This document shows, piece by piece, positions 47,633-58,042 of a stretch of DNA of 64,000 nt. The notes under the pieces were generated by a model that did no database searches, had not been told where the DNA came from, and saw nothing but the letters and a program-made list of their open reading frames with translations. The stretch's first letter is position 1, and each line of letters starts with the position of its first letter. The position numbers and the translations under genes were made by a program. Origin of the DNA: Fundidesulfovibrio soli (lineage in GTDB: Bacteria > Desulfobacterota > Desulfovibrionia > Desulfovibrionales > Desulfovibrionaceae); NCBI RefSeq assembly GCF_022808695.1, contig NZ_JAKZKW010000008.1, forward strand, positions 1 through 64,000, in the 5' to 3' direction.

Positions 47633-48418
47633 TTAGCAAGCGTCCGCTAATTGAGTCTCGCGGCTGAGTTGTTCTGCCTCGAAGGCCTCTGGCGACCTGT
47701 AGCCAAGGGTCGAGTGCAGATAGTTGGCGTTGTAGCCGTCGATCCAGCGATCCAAAGACTCCAAGAAGGCGCCAGGACTCGTGAACTCGTTGATCCAGAC
47801 CAGCTCTTCCTTGAGCGTGCGCATGAAGCGCTCCGTATCCGCGTTGCCTTTGGGGTTGGAGTAGCTGGTGAACGCCTGGTTGATGCCCATGATCCGGCAA
47901 GACTTCATGAAGCTCACCGATGTGGGTTGGCAGCCGTTGTCGGACATCAAGTTAAGCGCCGCCCCACGCGCACCTTCGGAAAACTGGCGGTTCACGGCCT
48001 TGTTCAGCGCCGCCAGCCAGTGCCAAGCCCGGGCCTGCAACCCGGCGTAATGCCCAACGACCTTCTTGGTGTTCCAGTCCAGCACGATCACCACGTAGAC
48101 CCAGCCGAAGCCTTCGATCATGACCTTGGTCATGTCGATGCCCCACCACTGATTCGGCCTGGTGGGCCTGGGCTTGCTGCCGGTCGGTTTGCGCTTGGCC
48201 TTGAGCAGCTGATTGCTCCGCACCGTCAACCCGTGCTCCTTCATAAGCCGGTGCACTCGGTTCTTGCCGACGGCCAGCTCATCAACGAAGCGTAGATGAG
48301 CCCATATGCGCCGGTAGCCCCAGAACGGGTGATCAGCCTTGAGCGAGCGAATACGGTCCAGAAGGTCGGCGTTTCGGGCGGCGACTTTGGCGTAAGAGCC
48401 GCGCCGTTTCACGGCCAA
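47633..48418 (-). CDS. IS3-family transposase OrfB, DDE integrase core
   Basis: About 261 residues. HTH_21 region PFWGYRRIWAHLRF, then the rve core with Asp in WGIDMTKVMI, Asp in LMSDNGCQPTS and Glu in KGNADTERFMRTLKEE, and a closing LGYRSPEAFEAEQLS. The only start codon in this frame is a TTG overlapping orfA by 10 bp, so production by -1 frameshift at 48426-48433 is more likely. Appears intact. Confidence 0.88.
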   Translation of the reverse strand: MAVKRRGSYAKVAARNADLLDRIRSLKADHPFWGYRRIWAHLRFVDELAVGKNRVHRLMKEHGLTVRSNQLLKAKRKPTGSKPRPTRPNQWWGIDMTKVMIEGFGWVYVVIVLDWNTKKVVGHYAGLQARAWHWLAALNKAVNRQFSEGARGAALNLMSDNGCQPTSVSFMKSCRIMGINQAFTSYSNPKGNADTERFMRTLKEELVWINEFTSPGAFLESLDRWIDGYNANYLHSTLGYRSPEAFEAEQLSRETQLADAC

Positions 48419-48696
48419 CCGTCCGTTTTTTTTAACTCCAAGGTCAACTCGCCGACCAATCCCTTGAGTTTGGCATTCTCAGACCCAAGCCGTTGGGTGC
48501 GCTTGTCCACAGTGGCCGTCTCGAACACGCGGTGGGCATTGCCGAGAAAGCGGTCGCGCCACTGGTAATACTGAGCCTGGGAAATGCCGTGCTCGTTGCA
48601 CAGCTCGCCGATTGGCCGTCCTCGAAGGCCTTCGAGCACGATGAGAGCCTTCTGCTCCGGGGTCCACTTCCGTCGTTTCATGGCCGACCTCCTCAT
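48409..48696 (-). CDS. IS3-family transposase OrfA, helix-turn-helix protein
   Basis: 95 residues with a transposase_8 HTH (RRKWTPEQKALIVLEGL, then ELCNEHGISQAQYYQWRDRF) and a short leucine heptad region (RLGSENAKLKGLVGELTLEL). It supplies end-binding in the OrfAB transposase. A second ATG five codons in is an alternative start. Confidence 0.88.
   Translation of the reverse strand: MRRSAMKRRKWTPEQKALIVLEGLRGRPIGELCNEHGISQAQYYQWRDRFLGNAHRVFETATVDKRTQRLGSENAKLKGLVGELTLELKKTDGWP
48426..48433 (-). promoter_or_regulatory. Predicted -1 frameshift slippery site (A8 on minus strand) between orfA and orfB
   Basis: A run of eight T on the plus strand lies just inside the 3' end of orfA, eight bases upstream of the orfB frame's first possible start. 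Same arrangement as in the IS2-like element at 1475-1482. Confidence 0.65.
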
Positions 48697-48870
48697 CGGA
48701 ATCAGCCACGAAAACTAAGTTAGCGCAACCGCTCACCAAACCGGGGGCAGGATAATCCCTCCACATCTGTGTTCTGAGTGGGCTTGAGGCGTCACTTCTT
48801 ATTCTTACTGGTTAAAACCAGGTTAAGAGGTCGAGAAGTCAGGAATGACAAGGCTTCCCGGACGTTTTCT

Positions 48871-48969
48871 GCGGAGTTATGCCAATATAGCGCGGAGCTA
48901 TGCCCATAGGCGCGGTGTAGTGCCAACGTTTTGCGGAGCTATGCCAACATCCTGTTGGCATAGCTCCGC
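48871..48969 (+). repeat. Iteron-like array: four direct copies and one inverted copy, candidate replication origin
   Basis: A 15-bp core GCGGAGYTATGCCAA occurs at 48871 (GCGGAGTTATGCCAA), 48892 (GCGGAGCTATGCCCA), 48912 (GCGGTGTAGTGCCAA, weakest) and 48933 (GCGGAGCTATGCCAA), spaced 21, 20 and 21 bases, about two helical turns. The copy at 48955-48969 is inverted. Copies four and five form a 37-bp palindrome with 17-bp perfect arms and a TCC centre. The array lies 13 bases past the stop of a TrfA-like replication initiator gene, which is the normal neighbourhood of a plasmid origin. Confidence 0.85.
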
Positions 48970-48981
48970 GCTCGATTTATC

Positions 48982-49923
48982 TCACCGAAACCATTTAATC
49001 TTTCCATTGTCTTCATAGAATCCCCAAGAACCAAGGATGCCCACTCGAACCAGTTCGGCCAGCGCAGTCGCCAAATAGTTTCGAAAGTCCCTGACTCTCC
49101 CCTCATGTCCACACCACGCCTTGAGATTCGCCACGCTGACCCTGTGCTCCCCCTTGGCATGGCTCACAGCGTAGCACTGTAGCCACTTTGCAAGCTCGGC
49201 CTTGTTCGCGATCTGTCGCCGCTTCTCCATATCAACATATCCGAATGACTTGACCCCGAAGGCTCGGAGTGAATCGGCGGGTATCGTGAAATAGTATTCT
49301 TCTGCACCCTTGTCGTACCTCAGTGGGCCAATCAGCGGGGTGCTGCCCTGTTCATCAGGTGTGTCATAGAACAGACGTCCGGTGGAGATGCGCGCAAAAC
49401 TTTGCTCAAGCCATTTGAAGCCTGACCCGCCTATCTTTCTTCCCAGGAGGCGCAAAAACTCCGTACGATTGATTTTGATCGGAGTATCCGAGGCAACGCC
49501 TTTCGCCAGCATAAGCGCGGTCAGGTATGTGTCTTGGTCGCTAACGTCCAATTGCTTGCCGAAATACCAGAGCGAAATGCCTCCAGGAGAAGGTAGCCGA
49601 ACCATGTCGTGGATCTTCCGTCGTCCGCGCTTGATCGGTGCGAAAAGCGGAGTTCGGGCGAGTTTGTTCCCCATGGGAGCCGTACCTTTTGGAGTGACGG
49701 GAACGCCCGGAAGAGTGCCTTGTGCATGGCCAACTCTCTCGTAGGCCTCACGAGCTATGTCCCATGCCGTCCTATTTGGCGGCTGAAACTGGTGCGGGGC
49801 CTGAGCCTTTGCCTCACGAGCATGGTCTGACTCCAAGCAAAGCGCGTCATCCCGAGGATCAATCTGAAAAGATCGAATCTTGTTCGGCTGGGTGCCATCT
49901 TGGCTGAGGTTGCCCATCCTCAT
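48982..49923 (-). CDS. TrfA-like plasmid replication initiation protein
   Basis: 313 residues from the ATG at 49923, chosen because GGGAGG lies 7 bases upstream. A longer frame would need a TTG at 49962. It matches the TrfA family (RK2-type initiator) pattern: RTPLFAPIKRGRRK, GISLWYFGKQLDVSDQDTYL, INRTEFLRLLGRKIGGSGFK, FYFTIPADSL-like YYFTIPADSLRAFG, and KAELAKWLQCYAVSHAKG. TrfA proteins bind iterons through two winged-helix domains and load the host helicase. The iteron array next to it supports this. It sits between an insertion element and tRNA-Thr, so an integrated plasmid or replicating island is likely. Confidence 0.8.
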   Translation of the reverse strand: MRMGNLSQDGTQPNKIRSFQIDPRDDALCLESDHAREAKAQAPHQFQPPNRTAWDIAREAYERVGHAQGTLPGVPVTPKGTAPMGNKLARTPLFAPIKRGRRKIHDMVRLPSPGGISLWYFGKQLDVSDQDTYLTALMLAKGVASDTPIKINRTEFLRLLGRKIGGSGFKWLEQSFARISTGRLFYDTPDEQGSTPLIGPLRYDKGAEEYYFTIPADSLRAFGVKSFGYVDMEKRRQIANKAELAKWLQCYAVSHAKGEHRVSVANLKAWCGHEGRVRDFRNYLATALAELVRVGILGSWGFYEDNGKIKWFR

Positions 49924-50031
49924 GGCCGACCCTCCCGATACGACGGAAATGGGCGTGGCCAAACGTTATGCTTGTTTGGGCATTCCTGTCCTGCTTTCAG
50001 GGGGCAATCTTGTTCCCTAAATCCGTCGCCA

Positions 50032-50051
50032 GGGTAGCAATGGGGTAGCAA
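50032..50051 (+). repeat. Two GGGTAGCAA direct repeats, 11 bases apart, near the tRNA 3' end
   Basis: GGGTAGCAA at 50032-50040 and 50043-50051, within 70 bases of the 3' end of the tRNA-Thr gene. Short tandem repeats with a helical-turn spacing beside a tRNA 3' end resemble integrase arm-type sites. No integrase is visible, so this is only suggestive. Confidence 0.4.
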
Positions 50052-50059
50052 AAGAGAAA

Positions 50060-50090
50060 AAGGCCTTACCCGATTTTAGGGTAAGGCCTT
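50060..50090 (-). terminator. Intrinsic terminator downstream of tRNA-Thr
   Basis: Perfect 12-bp arms AAGGCCTTACCC (50060-50071) and GGGTAAGGCCTT (50079-50090) around a 7-base loop. On the minus strand the hairpin is followed by TTTTTCTCTTTT, and T-runs exist on both sides, so it may work in both directions. Confidence 0.9.
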
Positions 50091-50098
50091 GTTTTTCC

Positions 50099-50174
50099 TG
50101 GAGCCAGCGAGGGGACTCGAACCCCTGACCTGCTGATTACGAATCAGCTGCTCTACCAACTGAGCTACGCTGGC
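50099..50174 (-). tRNA. tRNA-Thr (anticodon CGT)
   Basis: The reverse complement folds as a cloverleaf: acceptor GCCAGCG/CGCTGGC, D-arm GCTC...GAGC, anticodon stem GCTGA/TCAGC with loop TTCGTAA (anticodon CGT, reads ACG), T-arm AGGGG TTCGAGT CCCCT, and an encoded CCA after discriminator T. 76 bases. A strong terminator follows 8 bases after the 3' end. Its 3' end faces the accessory island. Confidence 0.96.
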
Positions 50175-50541
50175 GACTCGACAGGGAGCCTTGATATACA
50201 AGGGCTGCGGGGTGGTCAACCCCTCTTTCAGGCTAGGTTGTTTCGGGCCGGAATCGAGCAGGTCCGTCGTAAAGCGGCGCGGGCTTTTGCATCGGGCGCG
50301 CAGGGCTCGCGGGTGTCCATCGCATCCAGAACGGGACCACCTGAAACCCGCCTGCCCGGGAATGAGCCGTCCAGCCGTCGGGCAATCGCGCGTTGGGACC
50401 GCCTACGAATGTGGACGTGCCGATGCGCTCCCAGGCGTCCATTTCCCCTGCCGGGTGGCGGGCGCAACCGGCCCGCCTGACACGGATGGCAGGCGGGCCG
50501 TATAACGTCAAGGCGCGCTTCTGGTGGTCGTGAGAGCGCCG
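50175..50541. other. Gene-free stretch between tRNA-Thr and the Rhs gene; contains a strong hairpin
   Basis: No supported gene. In particular no small ORF that looks like an Rhs immunity protein. A perfect 10-bp stem GGCCCGCCTG/CAGGCGGGCC at 50470-50499 lies 43 bases past the Rhs stop and could terminate its transcript, though no T-run follows. The tRNA promoter must lie just right of 50174. Confidence 0.5.
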
Positions 50542-53500
50542 TCAGCGTTTCGGGCACCAGAACTGCTGCGTCCGGCGCCATTCATCCTCAGTTTCTTTCA
50601 CCCGCTTCATGTTTGTGTCCTGTCCGGCAGTGAATATGTCGGCCATGACGCCGTAAACTCCGCCGAGCAGGGCCTTGCCCATCTCGAACATCCCTTCGGC
50701 GAAGCGCTGGCTGGGGGGGGCGGTCTGGTTGATGTACATCAGCTTGTACGGCAGGTAGACCGCCGACACGATCCCGCCCTTGGAGCTCAACGTGACGTCC
50801 GCGGCAGTCTTGAAGTCGTCCCACATTTGGCGCTGATACGCGTTGGGCTCAAAGACCATCTTCCCGTTTTGGGACATATGCTCGTAGTCGCCCTTGAAGA
50901 TGCCCTCGTCGGAGCGCAGGCCCAGGGGGTCGATGAAGCGCACGGGGTTGCCCTCCGCATAGCGGTAGAGGTTTATCCCGCCTTCGAAGCCGATGGGGTC
51001 GCGCTGCAGGAAGCGCCCGGCCTGCGCGTCGTAGTAGCGGTTGCGCATGAGGAAGAAATCCGCGCCCTCGTCCATCACCCCGTACGCGCCCGCATACGTG
51101 AAGGGGGTGGAGCGCCCGGTGTGCGCGACCACGGCCCCATAGGGCCCGTAGGCGTATGCGCCCACGGTGGCCCCGGAGGCGTCCGTGAGGGCCAGCGTGT
51201 TGCCGGTCTTGTCGTAATGGTGGAACACGAACCCGCCCGCCGCCGTGCCGGAAGCCAGGAGGCGGTTGTCGTCGTAGATGTAGCAGGCCGTCACGGCGCC
51301 GGTGTGGTCGGTCTCGAAGGCCGCCCGGCCTCGGGGATCGAAGTGCAGGTTGCGGGTGACGCCGCCCGCGGCCACCCACACGCGGTTGCCGAGGGCGTCA
51401 TACCTGTATTGGCGCGTCACGCCGCCCGCCACGAGGGAAACGGGCCTGTTCTCCACGTCGTAGACCGCGGTCATGGCCCGCGTCCCGGCGATGGCGGTCA
51501 GGTTGCCGTCGGCGTCGGCGGTGGCCGGGTCCGTGCCCCAGGCGGTCATGGAATCGGCGTTGTTGAACGTGGCCCGGAAGGGCTTGACCGGCCCGCGCGG
51601 CGTGAGGGGCCAGGTGCCGGACTCGCTGACGATGGCGCCGGAGGCGTCGCGGGCATAGCTGATGTTGGCCAGAGTCCTTGACGCGCTCTGATGCGCCACG
51701 GAGGTCAGCTTGCCCGTGGCGTTGTACCCGTAGGTGGTGTTCATCCCGTTGGAGCGCGTTTCGGAGGTGACCCGGCCCTCTCCATCGTAGCCCAGGCTGA
51801 CGGAATAGGCGCCGAAATCCACCTTGGTGGGCCAGCCGCGCCCGTTGCGGGTGTAGGTGACGCTCAGGCCGCCGGGGTAGCCGATGCCGGAGACGCGGCC
51901 CGCGGAGTCGTAGCTGATGTTGAGCCCCTTGGCGCCGTCGGGGTCCTGGGTCATGGTCACCTGGCCCGCCGCGTCGCGCGTCCAGTTCACGGTGCCGGTG
52001 GCCGGGGTGGAGTGGCTGGTCAGCCTGCCCTGCTGGTCCCAGGCGTAGCTCGCCGCCACGGCGTTTTCGTGCTTTTTGGTGACGACCCTCCCGTCAGCGT
52101 CGTAGGTCAGCATGTAGAGCTGGGAGCGGCCGTTGTATTTCGCCACGATGCGTCCGGCGGCGTTGATGGTGTAGTTCGCCGTGTTGTTGCCCTGGGGGTC
52201 GAACACGTTGAGCAACTGGCCGCGCAGGCCGTATTCCTGGGTCGTCGCCGCACCCTTGGGGTTCATGACCGAGGTGACCCTGCCCGCCGCGTCGCGCCCG
52301 TAGAACACCGTGCGCCCGGCGGGGTCCGTATCGGAGAACAGCCTGTTGGCGCTGTCGTAGGTGTACTGGCGTATCCGCCCCAGTGGGTTCACCTCGGTCA
52401 GGGGGCTGGAGTTGGCGTTGTATGTGAACTGGGTCTGGCCGCCCATGGGGTCCGTGATCCTGGTGACGTTCATCAGGGCGTCGCGGGCATAGAGGGTGGT
52501 GCGCCCGTTGGCGTCAATTGAGCTGGTCATGGCGCAGCAGTCGTAGCCGTACTGGTTCGTGGCTCCGCCGGGATGGGTCTGCATCACCAGGCGGCGGTTG
52601 TCGTCGTACATGAAGCTGGTGGTGTTGCCCGCCGGGTCGGTCAGGGAGGCGCGGTTCAGGCCCGCGGTGTCGTAGGCGATGCGGGTGCGGTTGCCCAGGG
52701 GGTCAAAGATGTCGGTGAGGTTCCCGTGGGTGTCATACTGGTAGGACTGGGAGGCCCCGCCCGGCAGCGTGGCGCTGGTCTGCAAGCCCTTGGAGTCGTA
52801 GGCCATGGACGTGGACCTGGCCAGGGGCGACGTTATGGAGGTCAGGTTGCCGCGGACATCGTAGCCGTAGGTCCAGGAATTGCCCATGGGGTCGACCTTG
52901 CCGGTCATGTTGCCGTTGGCGTCGTAGGTGAACGTGGTCGCCCCGCCGTCGGCTTCCGTCCACTTGGTCGGGTTGCCGTCGCCGTCGTATTCGAAACTGG
53001 CGGCGCGGCCCGTGGCGTCGGTCTCAGAGGCGAGCATGCCCTGGGCGGTATAGCTCCTGTACGTTGTCTGGCCCAAGGCGTTGGTTATCTGGGTCGTGCG
53101 GCCCCCGGAGTTGGAGTAGGTGCGCACCGCTCCGCCCGGCTCCGTGACGGTCTTGATGGCCGGGCTGACGTAGCCGTACTGCCACACGGCTCCGTTGGCG
53201 TCCGTGACCTGGGAGACGTAGGTCGTCTGCCCGGAAGTGGAGTAGGTGAACGCCGTGGTTCTGCCCGCCGTGGTGATGGAGGCGATGTATTTGTCCGCGG
53301 TGTAGGTGTAGGTGGTCACGTTGCCGGCCAGGTCAGTGCTTTTGGTCATGTTGCCGTCGGCGTCGTACTGGAAGAAGGCGGTGCGCCCGCCCAGGGTGGT
53401 GAACTGGGTGCAGCGTCCGCTGACGTCCGTCACGAACGTGGTGACCCGCCCGGAGGCGTCCATGAGGGTGCCCAGGCTGCCCTTGCCGTCGTAGGTCAGG

Positions 53501-54639
53501 GTCAGGGCGTTGCCGTTGCGGTCCGTTATGGAGGTCAGGCGGTAGACGTAGGCCCCTGTTCCGTCCTGTGCCACGTAGTCGTAGCGCCGGGTCAGCTTGG
53601 CCTGCTTGTCGTGGAGGATGTAGTGGCCCGTGCCCGTGGCCTCGTTCAGCACGCCCGTGAGCTGCTGGGTGCGTCCCTTGGCCGAACAGGCGTAGCTCAC
53701 CGTGAGCTCGCCCGTACCCTGCCCAGTGGTGCCGCTGACCGTATAGGAGAAGCCCTGGCCGTTGCCCAGCTTCACCACGGCCCCGCCGGAGGTGTGGCTC
53801 AGGGCGGTCAGGGTGGATGCATAGGCGAAGGACCACCCGTTGCCGAACAGCCCCGTTTCGCTTGGGCGCATGTTCCACACCCGGCGCAGCTCCACCTGGT
53901 GGCCGAAGCTCTGGTAGGCCAGGTCCGTGTCGTCCACGGCCAGGCTCAGGTAGGACATGTTCACGCCGAACACCGGCAGCCCCTGGCCGGAGCATGTGCC
54001 GGCACCGCCCCGCTCGAATTCTGTGTCGGGGTTGTCCTTGCCGGCGCCCAGGTTCTCGTCCTTGTTCTCGGGGCCGGAGAAGTCCACGGGGGAGCTGACG
54101 TACACCTCCCAGCAGCCGCTCCAGCCGGTGCCGATCTTCAACGTGGCATAGTCCCCGTAATCCTGCGACATGGTGTAGCCGATGCTGCCGCTCCGCGACT
54201 CACCCGCCCGGATGAAGCTGAAGGTCCTGCTGCCGGAATAGTGCACCCCACCAGAGTAGCTCTGGAGCAGGTCCATGGTGAGGGCGTCGATCCCGGGAAC
54301 GAGGATGTACCGTTGATCGCTGTTGTCGGGGTACTCGGGGTTGGGCACGCTGATCAGCTCGGACGTGCTGTCCACCGTGATGGTGGCCTGCACGAAGCCG
54401 CTGCGGGGGATGGATGCGCCGGCGTTGGTGTATTCGACCACCGCAAAGGTGCAGCTTCCCTCGTCCTTGGAGCCGGGGCGGGTCTGGCTGTAGGCCCAGG
54501 AGCCGAACCCCTTGGTGGTGATGGTCAGGCAGGTGCCCGAATAACAGACGGATGTAGTGTCGTCCGCGCGGGCGATACGGTCCGCGCAGGGGCACAGCAG
54601 GGCCAGGAAGAGTGCGGCAAGGAGGAAGTGTCGCGGCAT
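50542..54639 (-). CDS. Secreted Rhs/YD-repeat protein with variable C-terminal tail
   Basis: 1365 residues. Signal peptide at 1-25 (FLLAALFLALLCPCADRIARA), a unique 200-residue N-terminal region, a DUF6531-type entry domain (FGHQVELRRVWNMRPSETG), then a long run of YD repeats (for example TFTYDANGNMTGKVDPMGNS, SYDSAGRVSGIGYPGG) and the Rhs core signature RFLQRDPIGFEGGINLYRY...FIDPLGL ending near residue 1240. The last roughly 125 residues differ from the shell and contain a hydrophobic stretch, the position of polymorphic toxins. GGAG lies 8 bases before the ATG. Toxin activity is not recognised and no immunity gene follows. Confidence 0.9.
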   Translation of the reverse strand: MPRHFLLAALFLALLCPCADRIARADDTTSVCYSGTCLTITTKGFGSWAYSQTRPGSKDEGSCTFAVVEYTNAGASIPRSGFVQATITVDSTSELISVPNPEYPDNSDQRYILVPGIDALTMDLLQSYSGGVHYSGSRTFSFIRAGESRSGSIGYTMSQDYGDYATLKIGTGWSGCWEVYVSSPVDFSGPENKDENLGAGKDNPDTEFERGGAGTCSGQGLPVFGVNMSYLSLAVDDTDLAYQSFGHQVELRRVWNMRPSETGLFGNGWSFAYASTLTALSHTSGGAVVKLGNGQGFSYTVSGTTGQGTGELTVSYACSAKGRTQQLTGVLNEATGTGHYILHDKQAKLTRRYDYVAQDGTGAYVYRLTSITDRNGNALTLTYDGKGSLGTLMDASGRVTTFVTDVSGRCTQFTTLGGRTAFFQYDADGNMTKSTDLAGNVTTYTYTADKYIASITTAGRTTAFTYSTSGQTTYVSQVTDANGAVWQYGYVSPAIKTVTEPGGAVRTYSNSGGRTTQITNALGQTTYRSYTAQGMLASETDATGRAASFEYDGDGNPTKWTEADGGATTFTYDANGNMTGKVDPMGNSWTYGYDVRGNLTSITSPLARSTSMAYDSKGLQTSATLPGGASQSYQYDTHGNLTDIFDPLGNRTRIAYDTAGLNRASLTDPAGNTTSFMYDDNRRLVMQTHPGGATNQYGYDCCAMTSSIDANGRTTLYARDALMNVTRITDPMGGQTQFTYNANSSPLTEVNPLGRIRQYTYDSANRLFSDTDPAGRTVFYGRDAAGRVTSVMNPKGAATTQEYGLRGQLLNVFDPQGNNTANYTINAAGRIVAKYNGRSQLYMLTYDADGRVVTKKHENAVAASYAWDQQGRLTSHSTPATGTVNWTRDAAGQVTMTQDPDGAKGLNISYDSAGRVSGIGYPGGLSVTYTRNGRGWPTKVDFGAYSVSLGYDGEGRVTSETRSNGMNTTYGYNATGKLTSVAHQSASRTLANISYARDASGAIVSESGTWPLTPRGPVKPFRATFNNADSMTAWGTDPATADADGNLTAIAGTRAMTAVYDVENRPVSLVAGGVTRQYRYDALGNRVWVAAGGVTRNLHFDPRGRAAFETDHTGAVTACYIYDDNRLLASGTAAGGFVFHHYDKTGNTLALTDASGATVGAYAYGPYGAVVAHTGRSTPFTYAGAYGVMDEGADFFLMRNRYYDAQAGRFLQRDPIGFEGGINLYRYAEGNPVRFIDPLGLRSDEGIFKGDYEHMSQNGKMVFEPNAYQRQMWDDFKTAADVTLSSKGGIVSAVYLPYKLMYINQTAPPSQRFAEGMFEMGKALLGGVYGVMADIFTAGQDTNMKRVKETEDEWRRTQQFWCPKR

Positions 54640-54798
54640 GGCGCGTCTCCATCGTCGAAACGTTCAGACCGTTGGCGATGCGCACCGTGGCGGGGGAACG
54701 AACGACTTCAGCGTCCGCCAGGCCAGACCGCTTGACCGAAAGACCGCGCGCGGGAAGCGCACAGGAAGGAACGAAATGTAATTGCCCCGGAGCGGACG

Positions 54799-55113
54799 CT
54801 AATCCTGCAGGACAGACTGGGCGGCGCCGCCGTTGGGGTTGCTCCCGAGGAGCAGGCTGTTGACGGCCGGAAGCGCCCCGGCGCTCCCCTGGACAACCAT
54901 CTGGGTGATGTTGCCGGCATCGTCGTAGGCGTAGATGATGCGCTGCCCGCCGCTGTACTTAACGGAGACCACCCGCCCGGCGTTGTCGTATACATAGGAG
55001 ACCGACGCCGCCTCAGCCCCCCCGGCCAACAGCAATACGGCTGCAAGCGCGCCAGCCAGGGGGCGGATTGTCCGTAAAATACAAGGAACTGAGGATGTTG
55101 AAGAAAGTTTCAT
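54799..55113 (-). CDS. Small secreted protein with two YD repeats
   Basis: 104 residues. A signal peptide (about 1-35, hydrophobic LAGALAAVLLLAGGAEA) is followed by two YD units, SYVYDNAGRVVSVKYSG and IYAYDDAGNITQMVVQG, and a short tail. It lies 159 bases upstream of the Rhs gene on the same strand with its own leader. It may be a stand-alone mini-YD protein co-expressed with the Rhs protein, or the remains of a larger Rhs gene. The ATG is preceded by GGAGG at a good distance (GGAGGAGCCATG region). Confidence 0.75.
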   Translation of the reverse strand: MKLSSTSSVPCILRTIRPLAGALAAVLLLAGGAEAASVSYVYDNAGRVVSVKYSGGQRIIYAYDDAGNITQMVVQGSAGALPAVNSLLLGSNPNGGAAQSVLQD

Positions 55114-55500
55114 GGCTCCTCCAGTACGCTACTGGAATACAGACCCGGTGCCACATTCTATGAAATCGCCCGGAAAATTGCAATATGATGCGCCTGGCAG
55201 CTCAAATTCCCCCGTGGGGTATATGCTGCCCGGCATTCATAAGTAAAAAGCTGGACTTCTGGAGTGCAAAAGCCCGACGCGCAACAGGCGCCCCCGGGAG
55301 GGGGCGCCTGTTCTGCTTCGGCCAGCTCTGGCTGCCGCTTGGGAATTGATTGCTCTGCCGGCCGGATTTTGCCGGCGTTACGGCGGGGGCCGGTGTCCGC
55401 CAATGCCGGGGGGCAGGGGACAGGGCCGGTTTGCCGGGATTCGCAGGTTGTTGACCGCGGGCCTGGGGTGACAGCTCCAGGCCCGCGAATCTCCCGGTCC
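55114..55500. other. Gene-free stretch with a long hairpin, between the YD genes and the DUF945 gene
   Basis: 387 bases without a supported gene. A 12-bp perfect stem ACAGGCGCCCCC/GGGGGCGCCTGT with a GGGA loop lies at 55284-55311. T-runs are short on both sides, so terminator function is likely but not certain. AT-rich sequence at 55155-55195 and 55235-55250 could hold the promoter of the YD/Rhs unit. Confidence 0.45.
55284..55311 (-). terminator. GC-rich hairpin, probable terminator of the DUF945 gene
   Basis: Twelve-base arms with a four-base loop, about 190 bases past the DUF945 stop. The following sequence on the minus strand (TTGCGCGTCGGGCTTTTGC) has only a delayed T-run, so efficiency is uncertain. 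Confidence 0.5.
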
Positions 55501-56826
55501 TTACTGGAGCGGCTTGCCGTTCACCAGCAGGGCCGATCCGTCCCATACGGCGCTGGAGCTGATGCGCGTGCCGTCGCGGGTGATGGAGCCCTTCTCGGTG
55601 AGCTGCTGCAGGGCGGTCTGCAATTGCTTCTGCTGGGCCTGGCTCTCCTTTTCCTGAGGGCTGGAGAACGTGTCCACGAGGATGACCAGCCCAGGCTCCT
55701 GGGCGCTCAGGTCGGCCTTGGCCCGGAGCTGCGCCAGCGCCTCCTGCGGCGTGGGCGGCACGCTCTTGAGCGCGGGAGCGCTCGCCTCGCCCTTGAGAGC
55801 CACCTCATTCTGGGTGCCGGGCAGCGCCTTCAGCTCAAATTCGACGCGGGGAGCCCTGACCAGCAACATGTCGTAGGTCTTGCGCACCTCGTCCACGTAG
55901 GGCCTCACGGCCTCGTTGCCGCCATACTCCCGTTGCAGCAGGTCGTTGAGTTGGGAGAATCCCTCCACGTCGAGGTTGAAGAGCGAAAGCGCCACGGAGA
56001 AGGGCAGCGGGGCGGACTTGTTGATGGCCGTCGCCCCGCTCAGGGACAGGGCGTAGTCGACGGTCGGCGCATGGAGCGTGGTCTTGCCGCGCAGTTCCAG
56101 GTTTTCAAGCGTTGAAGCCTGGGTGTTGGAGGGATCCTTGGTGCTCAGGGACAAGCCCGCGAGTTTCAGTTCGCTCTGTCCGTGCCAGACGTACGGGAGC
56201 AGCCTGACGGCGTCCGACCGGATGGTCAGCCCCTTGAGCAGGAAGGTGTAGTCGTTGTCCTGAAGGTTGATCAGCGGGATGTCCACCTTGGTGACCTGCC
56301 TGCTGAAATCCATGTCGGTGGAGACGGAGACGGTGGCTCCCTGGAACTCCTGGCGCAGCGGGGGGTCCCGGAAGAGGGGCGGCACGCTCAGCCGGAGATC
56401 CAGGCCGCCGCCCAAGCCGGCCTCGGCCCGCAGGGTGGTCCTGAAGAGTTCGGGAATCTGGTCCAGGGCATCGCGGACGGCCTTGGGGGTGCCCTCCGCC
56501 ATGGCGAAGCGCCCGTTGACCAGCGCGGCGCAGGGGCTGAGCGATCCGGCGGCGAAGGGGATTGGGCCGTGGGCCACGTCGAACGTGACCAGCAGGGAGA
56601 GCGCCTCGGGCCCGCCGGGTTGGGACAGGAAGCTGGCGGTGTAGGTGTAGCTGCTGCTGAAGATCCCGATCCGGCTCTGCTGCGGGGTGAAGCGGTATAG
56701 GGGTGAGCCGGAGGATATCCGCTTCAGGCTCGAGTCGATGGCCCCTCCGGCCTGGTTCGCGACGAAGACGGTGATGGCCATGTAGGCTGTGGCGGCGAGC
56801 AATGCGGCGACAAAGGATTTTTTCAC
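55501..56826 (-). CDS. DUF945 (YdgA-like) family protein
   Basis: 441 residues, GTG start with GGAG six bases upstream. A hydrophobic N-terminus (FVAALLAATAYMAITVFVA) acts as signal or anchor, so most of the protein is periplasmic. The body matches YdgA-type features: FDVAHGPIPFAAG, an AAAA-free beta-rich repeat pattern, and LNLDVEGFSQLNDLLQ. The family's function is unknown. It is on the same strand as ribD upstream, 76 bases away, and downstream of it are the YD/Rhs genes after a hairpin. Confidence 0.75.
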   Translation of the reverse strand: MKKSFVAALLAATAYMAITVFVANQAGGAIDSSLKRISSGSPLYRFTPQQSRIGIFSSSYTYTASFLSQPGGPEALSLLVTFDVAHGPIPFAAGSLSPCAALVNGRFAMAEGTPKAVRDALDQIPELFRTTLRAEAGLGGGLDLRLSVPPLFRDPPLRQEFQGATVSVSTDMDFSRQVTKVDIPLINLQDNDYTFLLKGLTIRSDAVRLLPYVWHGQSELKLAGLSLSTKDPSNTQASTLENLELRGKTTLHAPTVDYALSLSGATAINKSAPLPFSVALSLFNLDVEGFSQLNDLLQREYGGNEAVRPYVDEVRKTYDMLLVRAPRVEFELKALPGTQNEVALKGEASAPALKSVPPTPQEALAQLRAKADLSAQEPGLVILVDTFSSPQEKESQAQQKQLQTALQQLTEKGSITRDGTRISSSAVWDGSALLVNGKPLQ

Positions 56827-56902
56827 GGGCTTCTCCGCTATGGGTGGGATAGGTTGCCGCCGGACCCCCTGTCCGGTGGTCCGGGCAAACGGCCCGCGTT
56901 CA

Positions 56903-58042
56903 TCAGTCCGCGGGCATGTACGTCATGAGTAGGTCCTGGCCGCTTGGGCGCACGGCGCTCAGCCGCAACGGCAGGGCCATGTCCATGCGCTCCACGCAGG
57001 CCCCGGAAAACACGGGCACGCCGGAGGCGTCGCCCAGGATTTTCGGAGCCAGGAAATGCCGGAACTCGTCCATCAACCCCTGCCGGGCCAGGGAGAAGGC
57101 CAGCTGCCCTCCGCCCTCGCAGAGGGTGGCGTGGCATCCGGCCTCGGCGCGCAGTCGCTCGAACCCCGCGGCCAGTTGCAGCCTGTCGCCCAGGGTGGGC
57201 AGCTCCCAGACGCGCACGCCCTTGTCCCGCAAGGCTTCGGCCCGCCAGGATGCCGCGCTGGCCGGGGCGGTCCAGAAGATGGTCTGGGCGGGCCGGTCCA
57301 GCAGCAGGGAGAGCGGAGCGTCGTGCTCGGGCAGGAGCGACGTGACCACCACTGCCAGGGGCTGGGGGCCGTTCTCGCGGCCCTCCAGGCGCACGGTGAG
57401 CCTGGGGTTGTCGTGGCGCAGGGTGCCCCCGCCCACGAGCACGGCGTCGGCGCGGGCGCGCATGTCCTGCACCAGGGCGCGCGATTCCGGCCCGCTGACC
57501 CAGGAGGAGTGCCCCGTGCGCGTGGCGATGCGGCCGTCCAGGGTGGAGGCCATCTTGAGAACGTTGTAGGTGCGCTTCGTGGTCTGCCAGACCAAGAAGT
57601 CCGCGATCATGTCCCTGCATCGGCGCTCCAGCACGCCCGAATCCACCTCCACGCCGTTCTCGCGCAGGCGGGCGTTGCCGCCCCCGGCCACGGAGGCGTT
57701 GGGGTCCGTGCAGCCCACCACCACCTTGCGGATGCCCGCCGCCAGCACGGCTTCGGTGCAGGGGGGCGTTCTGCCGTGGTGGTTGCAGGGTTCCAGGGTG
57801 ACATAGAGGGTGCACTCGGCCGGGTCCACGCCCTTGGCGCGGGCGTCGGCCAGGCAGTTCACCTCGGCGTGGGGGCCGCCGCAACGCTGGTGCCAGCCCT
57901 CGGCCACCACCGCGCCTCCGCGAACGAGCACCGCGCCCACGCAGGGGTTGGGCGCGGTGGAGCCCTTGCCCCTGGAGGCGAGCTCCAGGGCGCGGCTCAT
58001 GAAGGCCTCGTCAGGCTTGGTCGGGTCGGGGCAGGGTATCAA
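56903..58042 (-). CDS. ribD: Bifunctional riboflavin biosynthesis protein RibD (deaminase/reductase)
   Basis: 379 residues. A TTG start at 58042 is favoured because GGAG lies six bases upstream and the conserved [12 protein letters not shown] begins only after it. N-terminal deaminase: GPHAEVNCL and [11 protein letters not shown] carry the zinc ligands and catalytic Glu. From about residue 145 the reductase domain follows ([55 protein letters not shown]). It performs two successive steps of riboflavin synthesis. Its first 32 bases overlap the dCMP deaminase gene. Confidence 0.95.

What the first reader, a model, noticed from the sequence alone, without database searches (positions are those of the whole stretch)
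54799..55113. Minimal secreted protein made of two YD repeats
A 104-residue exported protein with just two YD units precedes the large Rhs gene. I know of no function for such a small stand-alone YD protein. It may cap, chaperone or compete with the Rhs shell, or be a decay product.
Basis: partly seen in the sequence, partly recalled or inferred. Interest (0 to 1): 0.5.

Follow-up and report, generated by a model that had tools for sequence, protein, structure and literature searches.

The report
Small secreted partner of Rhs shells
A tiny secreted protein made of two YD repeats sits beside a giant Rhs shell gene; relatives of the same pair recur in distant bacteria, so it looks like a real working partner of the shell and not a broken leftover, though binding has not been tested.

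Summary
Window 54799-55113(-) encodes a 104-residue protein: signal peptide (by eye), two YD repeats (PF05593, 43 bits, cut-off 22), and a tail of about 28 residues. It lies 159 nt before a 1365-residue Rhs gene on the same strand.

It is not decay. Stand-alone "signal peptide + two YD" genes (SP-YD2) form a family. In 297 genomes of the window's phylum, 23 of 30 usable SP-YD2 genes lie beside an RHS gene on the same strand (about 0.06 expected); in 299 genomes of a Brevundimonas bin's phylum, 10 of 11 do. In 41 pairs, another SP-YD2 protein always scores above the neighbouring Rhs. dN/dS estimates are below 0.4 in several comparisons. Where Rhs tips and N-termini differ, SP-YD2 stays similar, so it follows the shell. 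The model is a four-stranded sheet resembling Rhs, Tc and teneurin shell segments (weak E-values).

Best reading: a co-exported accessory subunit that docks on the YD shell as cap or assembly partner; docking is inferred. Nearest published precedent: Bd0108/Bd0109 of Bdellovibrio, where a small secreted protein binds the neighbouring RHS protein. Seven literature searches (open-access library) showed no description of SP-YD2.

The parts
54799..55113 (-). SP-YD2 gene: 104-aa exported protein with two YD repeats and a short tail
   Evidence: paralogue; relatives
55009..55113 (-). signal peptide, residues 1-35 (cleavage after A-E-A, read by eye)
   Evidence: sequence; no signal-peptide program run
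54886..55008 (-). two YD units, residues about 36-76, predicted four-stranded sheet (strands 39-42, 48-52, 58-63, 69-75)
   Evidence: Pfam; AlphaFold2 (pLDDT about 80 there); fold match
54802..54879 (-). tail, residues 79-104, low confidence in the model; LLL...S(V/L)LQ-like pattern shared with the C14 paralogue and its orthologue in G001, looser in G331
   Evidence: alignments; model
50542..54639 (-). Rhs gene (1365 aa): export signal by eye, 17 RHS-repeat stretches, RHS-associated core domain, about 120-130-aa C-terminal region
55155..55183 (-). promoter-like site ahead of the small gene
   Evidence: consensus match only
55253..55275 (-). terminator-like hairpin between the upstream DUF945 gene (55501-56826) and the small gene (weak: 0.7 expected by chance)
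   Evidence: DUF945

Best explanation
The gene encodes a real, conserved accessory subunit of a Sec-exported Rhs (YD-shell) system. The two genes are probably co-transcribed and both products are exported. In the periplasm or outside the cell, the four-stranded YD2 sheet, which has two free edge strands, adds on to an exposed edge or end of the neighbour's YD shell, so that it caps the shell or helps it close. In longer relatives the same two-YD module carries adhesion-type domains after it (TSP3, PKD, fn3, bacterial Ig and others), so it would also serve as an adaptor that attaches them to the shell. Shown here: the gene, its family, its recurrent same-strand neighbourhood with RHS genes, low dN/dS in several members, independence from the neighbour's own repeats, and co-divergence with the shell rather than the toxin tip. 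Inferred: co-transcription, export, physical docking and the capping role.
For: Neighbourhood: 23 of 30 usable SP-YD2 genes of the 297-genome phylum survey lie beside an RHS gene on the same strand (one of them, G463); 10 of 11 in the 299-genome survey around a Brevundimonas bin; 11 of 13 in 15 fetched plasmid regions. 26 of 27 SP-YD2 genomes carry an RHS core, against 64 of the other 270 (Fisher p 3.9e-14). Tight gaps, two of them 4-nt overlaps. Own family: in 0 of 41 pairs does the neighbouring Rhs score above the best other SP-YD2; with ten plasmid Rhs proteins completed the neighbour's median rank among 41 Rhs proteins is 24. dN/dS 0.02-0.05 (G860 copies b and c), 0.18-0.29, 0.31-0.37, about 0.3 in two G860/G878 comparisons (no error bars). 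Co-divergence with the Rhs over 19 pairs: Mantel r 0.60-0.62, p 2e-4, full Rhs. In G860a/b/c and G878a the Rhs C-terminal windows with 30 or more aligned residues are 11-33% identical, the first 400 columns 16-36%, the shell windows 38-76%, the small proteins 57-95% in the three pairings compared whole. A separate small gene follows the RHS within 10 nt in 6 of 8 annotated enlarged plasmid regions, so the immunity seat seems taken. Structure: four strands at pLDDT about 80, Foldseek probability near 1 to Rhs, Tc and teneurin shells. Precedent: Bd0108 is co-transcribed with and binds the YD protein Bd0109 (PMC3818213 and PMC4267844, passages).
Against: No interaction was tested. The second RHS gene of this genome (C24) has no such neighbour in the 12 kb fetched, and only roughly a tenth of the 212 RHS-core matches in the survey have a detected SP-YD2 neighbour (detection was capped), so the partner is optional. 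A paralogue (C14) and its syntenic orthologue in G001 have no RHS within the 12 kb fetched. Gene order differs: upstream here, in G331 and in most Pseudomonadota cases, downstream in 21 of the 23 cases of the window's phylum. In many downstream cases the neighbour ranks 2-7 among the Rhs proteins, so some common history or local exchange is not excluded there. The window Rhs lacks no repeat pair compared with its partnerless paralogue, so the small protein does not replace a missing piece. The best Foldseek E-value is 0.02 and a small meander is easy to match; mean pLDDT of the model is 59. dN/dS is weak in G549/G591 (0.60-0.66) and C14/G001 (0.37-0.58). In G860a and G878a the small proteins are only about as conserved as the shells.
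Confidence: 0.5

Rival explanations
1. Periplasmic chaperone or sequestering regulator: it binds the Rhs transiently while it folds or waits, as proposed for Bd0108 with Bd0109, and is not part of the finished shell.
For: Same gene order, both products with secretion signals, and direct low-affinity binding in the Bdellovibrio pair. Small size. Follows the shell, not the toxin tip.
Against: Bd0108 is disordered and reported to have no known-family homology, whereas this one is a YD protein with a predicted sheet. Longer versions carry adhesion-type domains, which suits a structural role better.
Confidence: 0.22
2. Independent secreted carbohydrate- or surface-binding protein that merely shares an operon and mobility with Rhs genes.
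For: Copies without an RHS in the fetched stretch exist (C14, G001, G564, G539). X domains are adhesion-like.
Against: The very strong neighbourhood and genome co-occurrence and the co-divergence with the Rhs need another cause.
Confidence: 0.13
3. Decay remnant of a longer Rhs gene.
For: YD repeats next to an Rhs gene. Some RHS neighbours in relatives are themselves in pieces (G364, G380, G463, G878 second copy).
Against: 0 of 41 neighbours outscore the best other SP-YD2; same small form in distant groups; signal peptide directly before the YD units; low dN/dS in several comparisons; strong ribosome-binding site.
Confidence: 0.03
4. Immunity protein against the toxin tip of the Rhs.
For: Small gene beside a possible polymorphic toxin; the stretch between the Rhs stop and the tRNA gene (50175-50541) holds no obvious immunity gene.
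Against: SP-YD2 stays 57-95% identical where the toxin tips are unrelated. A separate small gene follows the RHS in 6 of 8 annotated plasmid regions, and same-strand ORFs fill the wide gaps between RHS and SP-YD2 in relatives.
Confidence: 0.04
5. A leader ORF whose translation controls the Rhs gene, the protein itself being unimportant.
For: Upstream place and 4-nt overlaps in two Pseudomonadota cases; inverted repeat touching the ribosome-binding site here (sequence).
Against: Amino-acid level conservation and downstream placement in most relatives of the window's phylum.
Confidence: 0.04

Closest known systems
Bd0108/Bd0109 of Bdellovibrio bacteriovorus (hit locus)
   Same: Small protein with a secretion signal (101 aa) encoded next to, and co-transcribed with, an RHS/YD-repeat protein with a secretion signal; direct binding reported.
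   Different: Bd0108 is intrinsically disordered and reported to have no homology to known families; no YD unit is described in it in the passages seen; Bd0109 is said to lack protease and C-terminal toxin regions; the function reported is pilus and growth control.
TcB/TcC (BC) shells of ABC/Tc toxins (e.g. PDB 4igl)
   Same: A single YD/RHS shell built from two polypeptides (recalled), and Foldseek matches to chains of both sizes in 4igl, so joining of YD sheets between chains has a precedent.
   Different: The chains matched in 4igl are over 660 residues each; I recall no two-repeat subunit there.
Eag (DUF1795) chaperones of T6SS Rhs effectors
   Same: Small dedicated helper encoded next to an Rhs gene (recalled; a chaperone paper, PMC7773334, seen as listing and abstract start).
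   Different: Cytosolic, different fold, binds N-terminal transmembrane segments (recalled). No such Pfam match here, and this protein has an export signal by eye.
Rhs/teneurin-like polymorphic toxins with immunity genes
   Same: The neighbouring gene has RHS repeats and an RHS-associated core; C-termini vary among relatives.
   Different: The small protein follows the shell, not the tip. The passages seen of the teneurin-like paper (PMC13018210) and the polymorphic-toxin survey (PMC3482391) speak of immunity partners, not of a YD partner.

Membership tests
YD/RHS-repeat proteins (PF05593) | YD repeats above the curated cut-off | tested here: met
   43 bits against 22, two stretches
SP-YD2 family (defined here) | export signal followed directly by one YD pair | tested here: met
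   profile search (signal judged by eye)
SP-YD2 family (defined here) | same-strand neighbour of an RHS gene | tested here: met
   Rhs 159 nt away; relatives 23 of 30 and 10 of 11; not met by the C14 paralogue
Decay remnant of the neighbouring Rhs | closest sequence is the neighbour | tested here: not met
   0 of 41 pairs
Polymorphic toxin (the Rhs neighbour) | RHS core followed by a variable C-terminal region | tested here: met
   TIGR03696 71.8 bits; C-terminal regions differ between relatives. Toxicity not tested.
Polymorphic toxin (the Rhs neighbour) | immunity gene next to the tip | tested here: inconclusive
   no convincing ORF between the Rhs stop and the tRNA gene
Bd0108-like regulators | homology to Bd0108 | not tested
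   Bd0108 sequence not fetched; the paper says no known-family homology
Eag (DUF1795) chaperones | DUF1795 domain, no export signal | tested here: not met
   no such Pfam match at E up to 1; signal peptide present by eye. The defining feature itself is recalled.
Any shell-binding partner | physical contact with the Rhs shell | not testable with these tools
   only single-chain prediction is offered

The most novel reading that the evidence does not exclude
Exported Rhs polymorphic toxins of several phyla use a hitherto undescribed constant small subunit, a two-YD add-on that completes or caps the shell in trans. The same module, fused to adhesion or anchor domains, is a general dock for fixing cargo or tethers on to YD shells.
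Probability: 0.4. Interest if true: 0.75.

Novelty: new variant of a known kind. Interest (0 to 1): 0.62.

Why it matters
How Rhs proteins exported with a signal peptide are folded, closed and held at the cell surface is, to my knowledge, open. A conserved, tiny, separable partner that follows the shell and not the toxin tip is a ready handle on it: delete it, co-purify it, or look for it in a shell map. If it docks on YD shells, it is also a natural two-repeat tag for attaching things to them, and it would give a role to short 'RHS repeat domain-containing' proteins that are now annotated by their repeat alone.

Tried and rejected
Decay product or split gene: rejected. Immunity protein: made unlikely. 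Missing-repeat complementation (the small gene supplying YD units the Rhs lost): the window Rhs, its partnerless paralogue C24 and the G331 Rhs align without a missing pair. Island ends: no exact 15-base repeat between 49901-50350 and 54641-57000. The genome-contig scan gave 11 loci; 2, L024 and L025, were SP-YD2 cases, the other matches lie in large or repeat-rich RHS frames.

How counts were made. In one search, 33 of the listed matches begin at profile position 19 or lower (counted by hand). Dropped: G541 (inside an RHS ORF), G612 (YD pair at residue 735 of an 899-aa gene directly before an RHS) and G433 (neighbours not fetched beyond 1.5 kb). 30 remain: 22 beside an RHS within 1.5 kb, G463 added; 2 of the 23 lie upstream of the RHS and 21 downstream. 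Each of seven wide gaps looked at holds at least one same-strand ORF (mechanical ORFs). In G364, G380 and G463 the RHS neighbour is in pieces; in G618 it is cut by the contig end. The 7 not beside one: C14, G388 (divergent RHS), G564, G539, and three at contig edges (G576 C162, G391, G352). The list was cut off, at most 18 candidates per genome were scored, and only strong matches count. In one search, 14 listed matches: 11 SP-YD2; dropped were two in G823 (one a C-terminal pair directly before an RHS, one not examined) and one inside an RHS; of the 11, 8 lie upstream (the second G878 copy before an RHS in two frames), 2 downstream, and G873 has no RHS on its 4.8-kb contig. Plasmids: 15 regions (14 records) of those were fetched; Mitsuaria (YD pairs inside a long upstream gene) and Thauera (no signal peptide, looks like an internal fragment) dropped; 11 of 13 beside an RHS; the others are an Asticcacaulis copy divergent from its RHS and a Sphingomonas copy with none in the stretch. 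A further Asticcacaulis copy (L037 421-897), not a search match of its own row, is also divergent from its RHS. Several of the 13 are close relatives. The binomial used at least 22 of 30 and an assumed mean genome size of 3.7 Mb. The first neighbour test used ten plasmid Rhs proteins cut at the stretch end; one search repeats it with them complete, with the same 0 of 41; the G905, G594 and G622 Rhs may still be cut. In two cases another, non-neighbouring Rhs scores higher (G523) or equal (G927) to the best SP-YD2.

Full report
What is there. The minus-strand ORF 54799-55113 (ATG to TAG) translates to 104 residues. It begins with a typical export signal (judged by eye), followed at once by two YD units that pass the Pfam RHS-repeat cut-off (43 bits against 22) and the NCBIfam YD repeat cut-off, and ends with a tail of about 28 residues. 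A strong ribosome-binding site precedes the ATG. A promoter-like site lies just upstream, and no promoter- or terminator-like site was found between it and the next gene on the same strand, the Rhs gene 50542-54639, whose start is 159 nt further on. The terminator-like site upstream is no better than chance expectation. The Rhs gene has its own export signal by eye, 17 RHS-repeat stretches and the RHS-associated core.

Is it a remnant? The same genome has a second small YD protein, on contig C14 (107 aa), with no RHS in the 12 kb around it, and a related species (G001) has its orthologue between the same kinds of neighbours, a TPR-like and a methyltransferase-like ORF by eye. The three share a tail pattern. 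Of 348 genomes of the order, this one and G331 (same family, other genus) have this Rhs N-terminal region at E up to 1e-8, and G331 has the small YD gene in the same place, 45 nt before the Rhs if the Rhs begins at its first possible codon. The second Rhs of the window's genome (C24) has no small partner in the stretch fetched. Aligned, the three Rhs proteins are 44-48% identical and no repeat pair is missing from the partnered ones, so the small gene is not a piece broken off.

A family with a fixed neighbourhood. A plasmid search with the Methylomonas relative, with hits, and reading of 15 regions showed SP-YD2 genes directly upstream of RHS genes in Methylomonas (three plasmids), Methylosinus, Burkholderia (two), Caballeronia, Variovorax, Rhizobium, Hartmannibacter and Asticcacaulis: 11 of 13 SP-YD2 cases, several of them close relatives. 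In Caballeronia and Variovorax the records carry no annotation there and the RHS is called from its YD repeats. A profile of 14 such sequences run over 297 genomes of the window's phylum gave 33 listed matches that include the signal region; of the 30 usable ones, 23 lie beside an RHS gene on the same strand, 21 of them downstream of it and 2 upstream, against about 0.06 expected. Each of seven wide gaps looked at holds at least one same-strand ORF, which may be immunity genes. In 299 genomes of the phylum of a Brevundimonas bin (Pseudomonadota by its genus, not named by the call), 10 of 11 SP-YD2 genes are beside an RHS, 8 upstream, with gaps of 5-66 nt or overlaps. A genome titled Verrucomicrobiaceae has two downstream copies. 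26 of the 27 SP-YD2 genomes of the first survey carry an RHS core, against 64 of the other 270. The window's phylum is not named by any search; it looks like the Desulfovibrio side to me, which is an impression, not a result.

Independence and constraint. For 41 pairs the YD pair of the small protein was scored against its neighbour Rhs, the other 40 Rhs proteins and 52 other small proteins. In 0 of 41 did the neighbour reach the best other small protein, and its median rank among the 41 Rhs proteins was 23, or 24 after ten cut plasmid Rhs proteins were completed. In many downstream cases the neighbour ranks 2-7, so it is not random there. In G523 a foreign Rhs scores above, and in G927 equal to, the best small protein. 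Window P0001 is closest to an SP-YD2 of the Verrucomicrobiaceae genome. dN/dS (seven comparisons, no error bars) was 0.02-0.05 for two copies in G860, 0.18-0.29 and 0.31-0.37 for two plasmid pairs, about 0.3 for two G860/G878 comparisons (one method only; dS above 1), 0.37-0.58 for C14/G001 and 0.60-0.66 for G549/G591; the last two are weak.

What it follows. Over 19 pairs with the small gene upstream, small-protein and Rhs identities correlate: Mantel r 0.60 for the YD pair and 0.62 for the whole small protein, p 2e-4, with complete Rhs proteins; 0.49 and 0.55 with cut ones. Rows are not independent, since some are close relatives. For the gammaproteobacterial UP202 pair the four nearest relatives are the same four betaproteobacterial ones for the Rhs and for the small protein (in one search Hartmannibacter came second for the small one), which suggests transfer as a unit. 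In four related pairs (G860a, b, c and G878a) the Rhs C-terminal windows with 30 or more aligned residues are 11-33% identical, the first 400 alignment columns 16-36%, the shell windows 38-76%, while the small proteins are 95, 58 and 57% identical in the three pairings compared whole and 67-93% over the YD pair. The small protein therefore goes with the shell. A separate small gene follows the RHS within 10 nt in 6 of 8 annotated enlarged plasmid regions. Both make an immunity role unlikely.

Structure. AlphaFold2 with a three-sequence alignment (the window protein and two loci that the tool admits) gives four strands at residues 39-75 (pLDDT about 80), a low-confidence tail, and low overall confidence (mean 59, pTM 0.40). 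Foldseek's best PDB matches are Rhs, Tc and teneurin shells, with probabilities near 1 but E-values of 0.02 and higher; OspA-type single-layer sheets also appear. A profile of the family hits solved Rhs proteins and teneurins by sequence. Of nine longer relatives scanned, six carry TSP3, PKD, fn3, InlB-type, glucodextranase-B or bacterial-Ig/cadherin domains above cut-off... the exact tally by protein is: L054 TSP3, L100 InlB-type, L113 TSP3, L120 InlB-type, L123 PKD, L101 fn3 and others, L160 bacterial Ig/cadherin, that is seven; L102 and L098 show only the RHS repeat above cut-off.

Mechanism. I propose that YD2 adds on to a free edge or end of the neighbour's YD sheet. Joining of YD sheets from two chains has a precedent in TcB/TcC (recalled). 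A small secreted partner encoded beside a secreted YD protein, and binding it, has a precedent in Bd0108/Bd0109: co-transcription, fluorescence quenching, protease protection, and a weak ITC affinity of 45 uM at about 3:1 (passages of PMC3818213 and PMC4267844). There the small protein is disordered and not described as a YD protein, so this is a likeness of arrangement, not membership.

Literature. Seven answered searches were seen as listings with abstract starts, and passages of four papers; none that I saw describes a small YD gene as a partner of Rhs genes. Only open-access papers of that library were searched, and no paper was read whole.

Limits. No binding was tested; signal peptides were judged by eye; the surveys list only strong matches; partners are optional, since most RHS genes in the survey have none detected.

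Noticed in passing
window 55120-55136: Perfect inverted repeat TCCAGTA-GCG-TACTGGA in the leader of the small gene, touching its ribosome-binding site (read); could be an operator or a hairpin that hides the site.
   Followed up: no
G000:C14:27788-28108 (L002 1474-1797) and L017 1489-1815: A second stand-alone two-YD protein, syntenic in two species, with no Rhs in 12 kb: what it would dock on is unknown.
   Followed up: partly
window 47633-50174: Transposase-like ORF, a 326-aa replication-initiator-like ORF (names by eye) and a tRNA-Thr gene lie just past the Rhs stop in lower-GC DNA; looks like an island edge, but no exact direct repeat was found.
   Followed up: partly
L048 2048-3145: In G331 a tyrosine-recombinase-like ORF (by eye) ends 260 nt from the Rhs stop, convergent with it.
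   Followed up: no
L165 1929-8467 and L166 15270-17955: GspE/GspF-type secretion or pilus genes lie next to the SP-YD2/RHS pair in Methylomonas UP202 and Asticcacaulis; the Bdellovibrio pair is also in a pilus gene cluster.
   Followed up: no
L167 16504-17070 and L054 3941-4540: In Methylomonas DH-1 an exosortase (XrtM) gene lies downstream of the pair, and the SP-YD2 protein has TSP3 repeats and a hydrophobic-plus-basic C-terminal end that looks like a sorting signal.
   Followed up: partly
L035 1520-4198, L108 5395-8094, L159 6006-7844: A longer protein directly before the RHS gene carries YD pairs further in: at 575 of 612 in L159, at 735 of 899 in L108, and three pairs from residue 472 of 892 in L035; perhaps the same dock placed last.
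   Followed up: no
L055, L061, L063 small genes: These alphaproteobacterial SP-YD2 tails share a W-G-x-G-x-x-G-C-(F/I)-x-W pattern, different from the window's tail; tails seem clade-specific.
   Followed up: partly
window 52573-54735 (+): A 720-aa open frame on the strand opposite the Rhs; most likely a shadow frame of GC-rich repeats.
   Followed up: no
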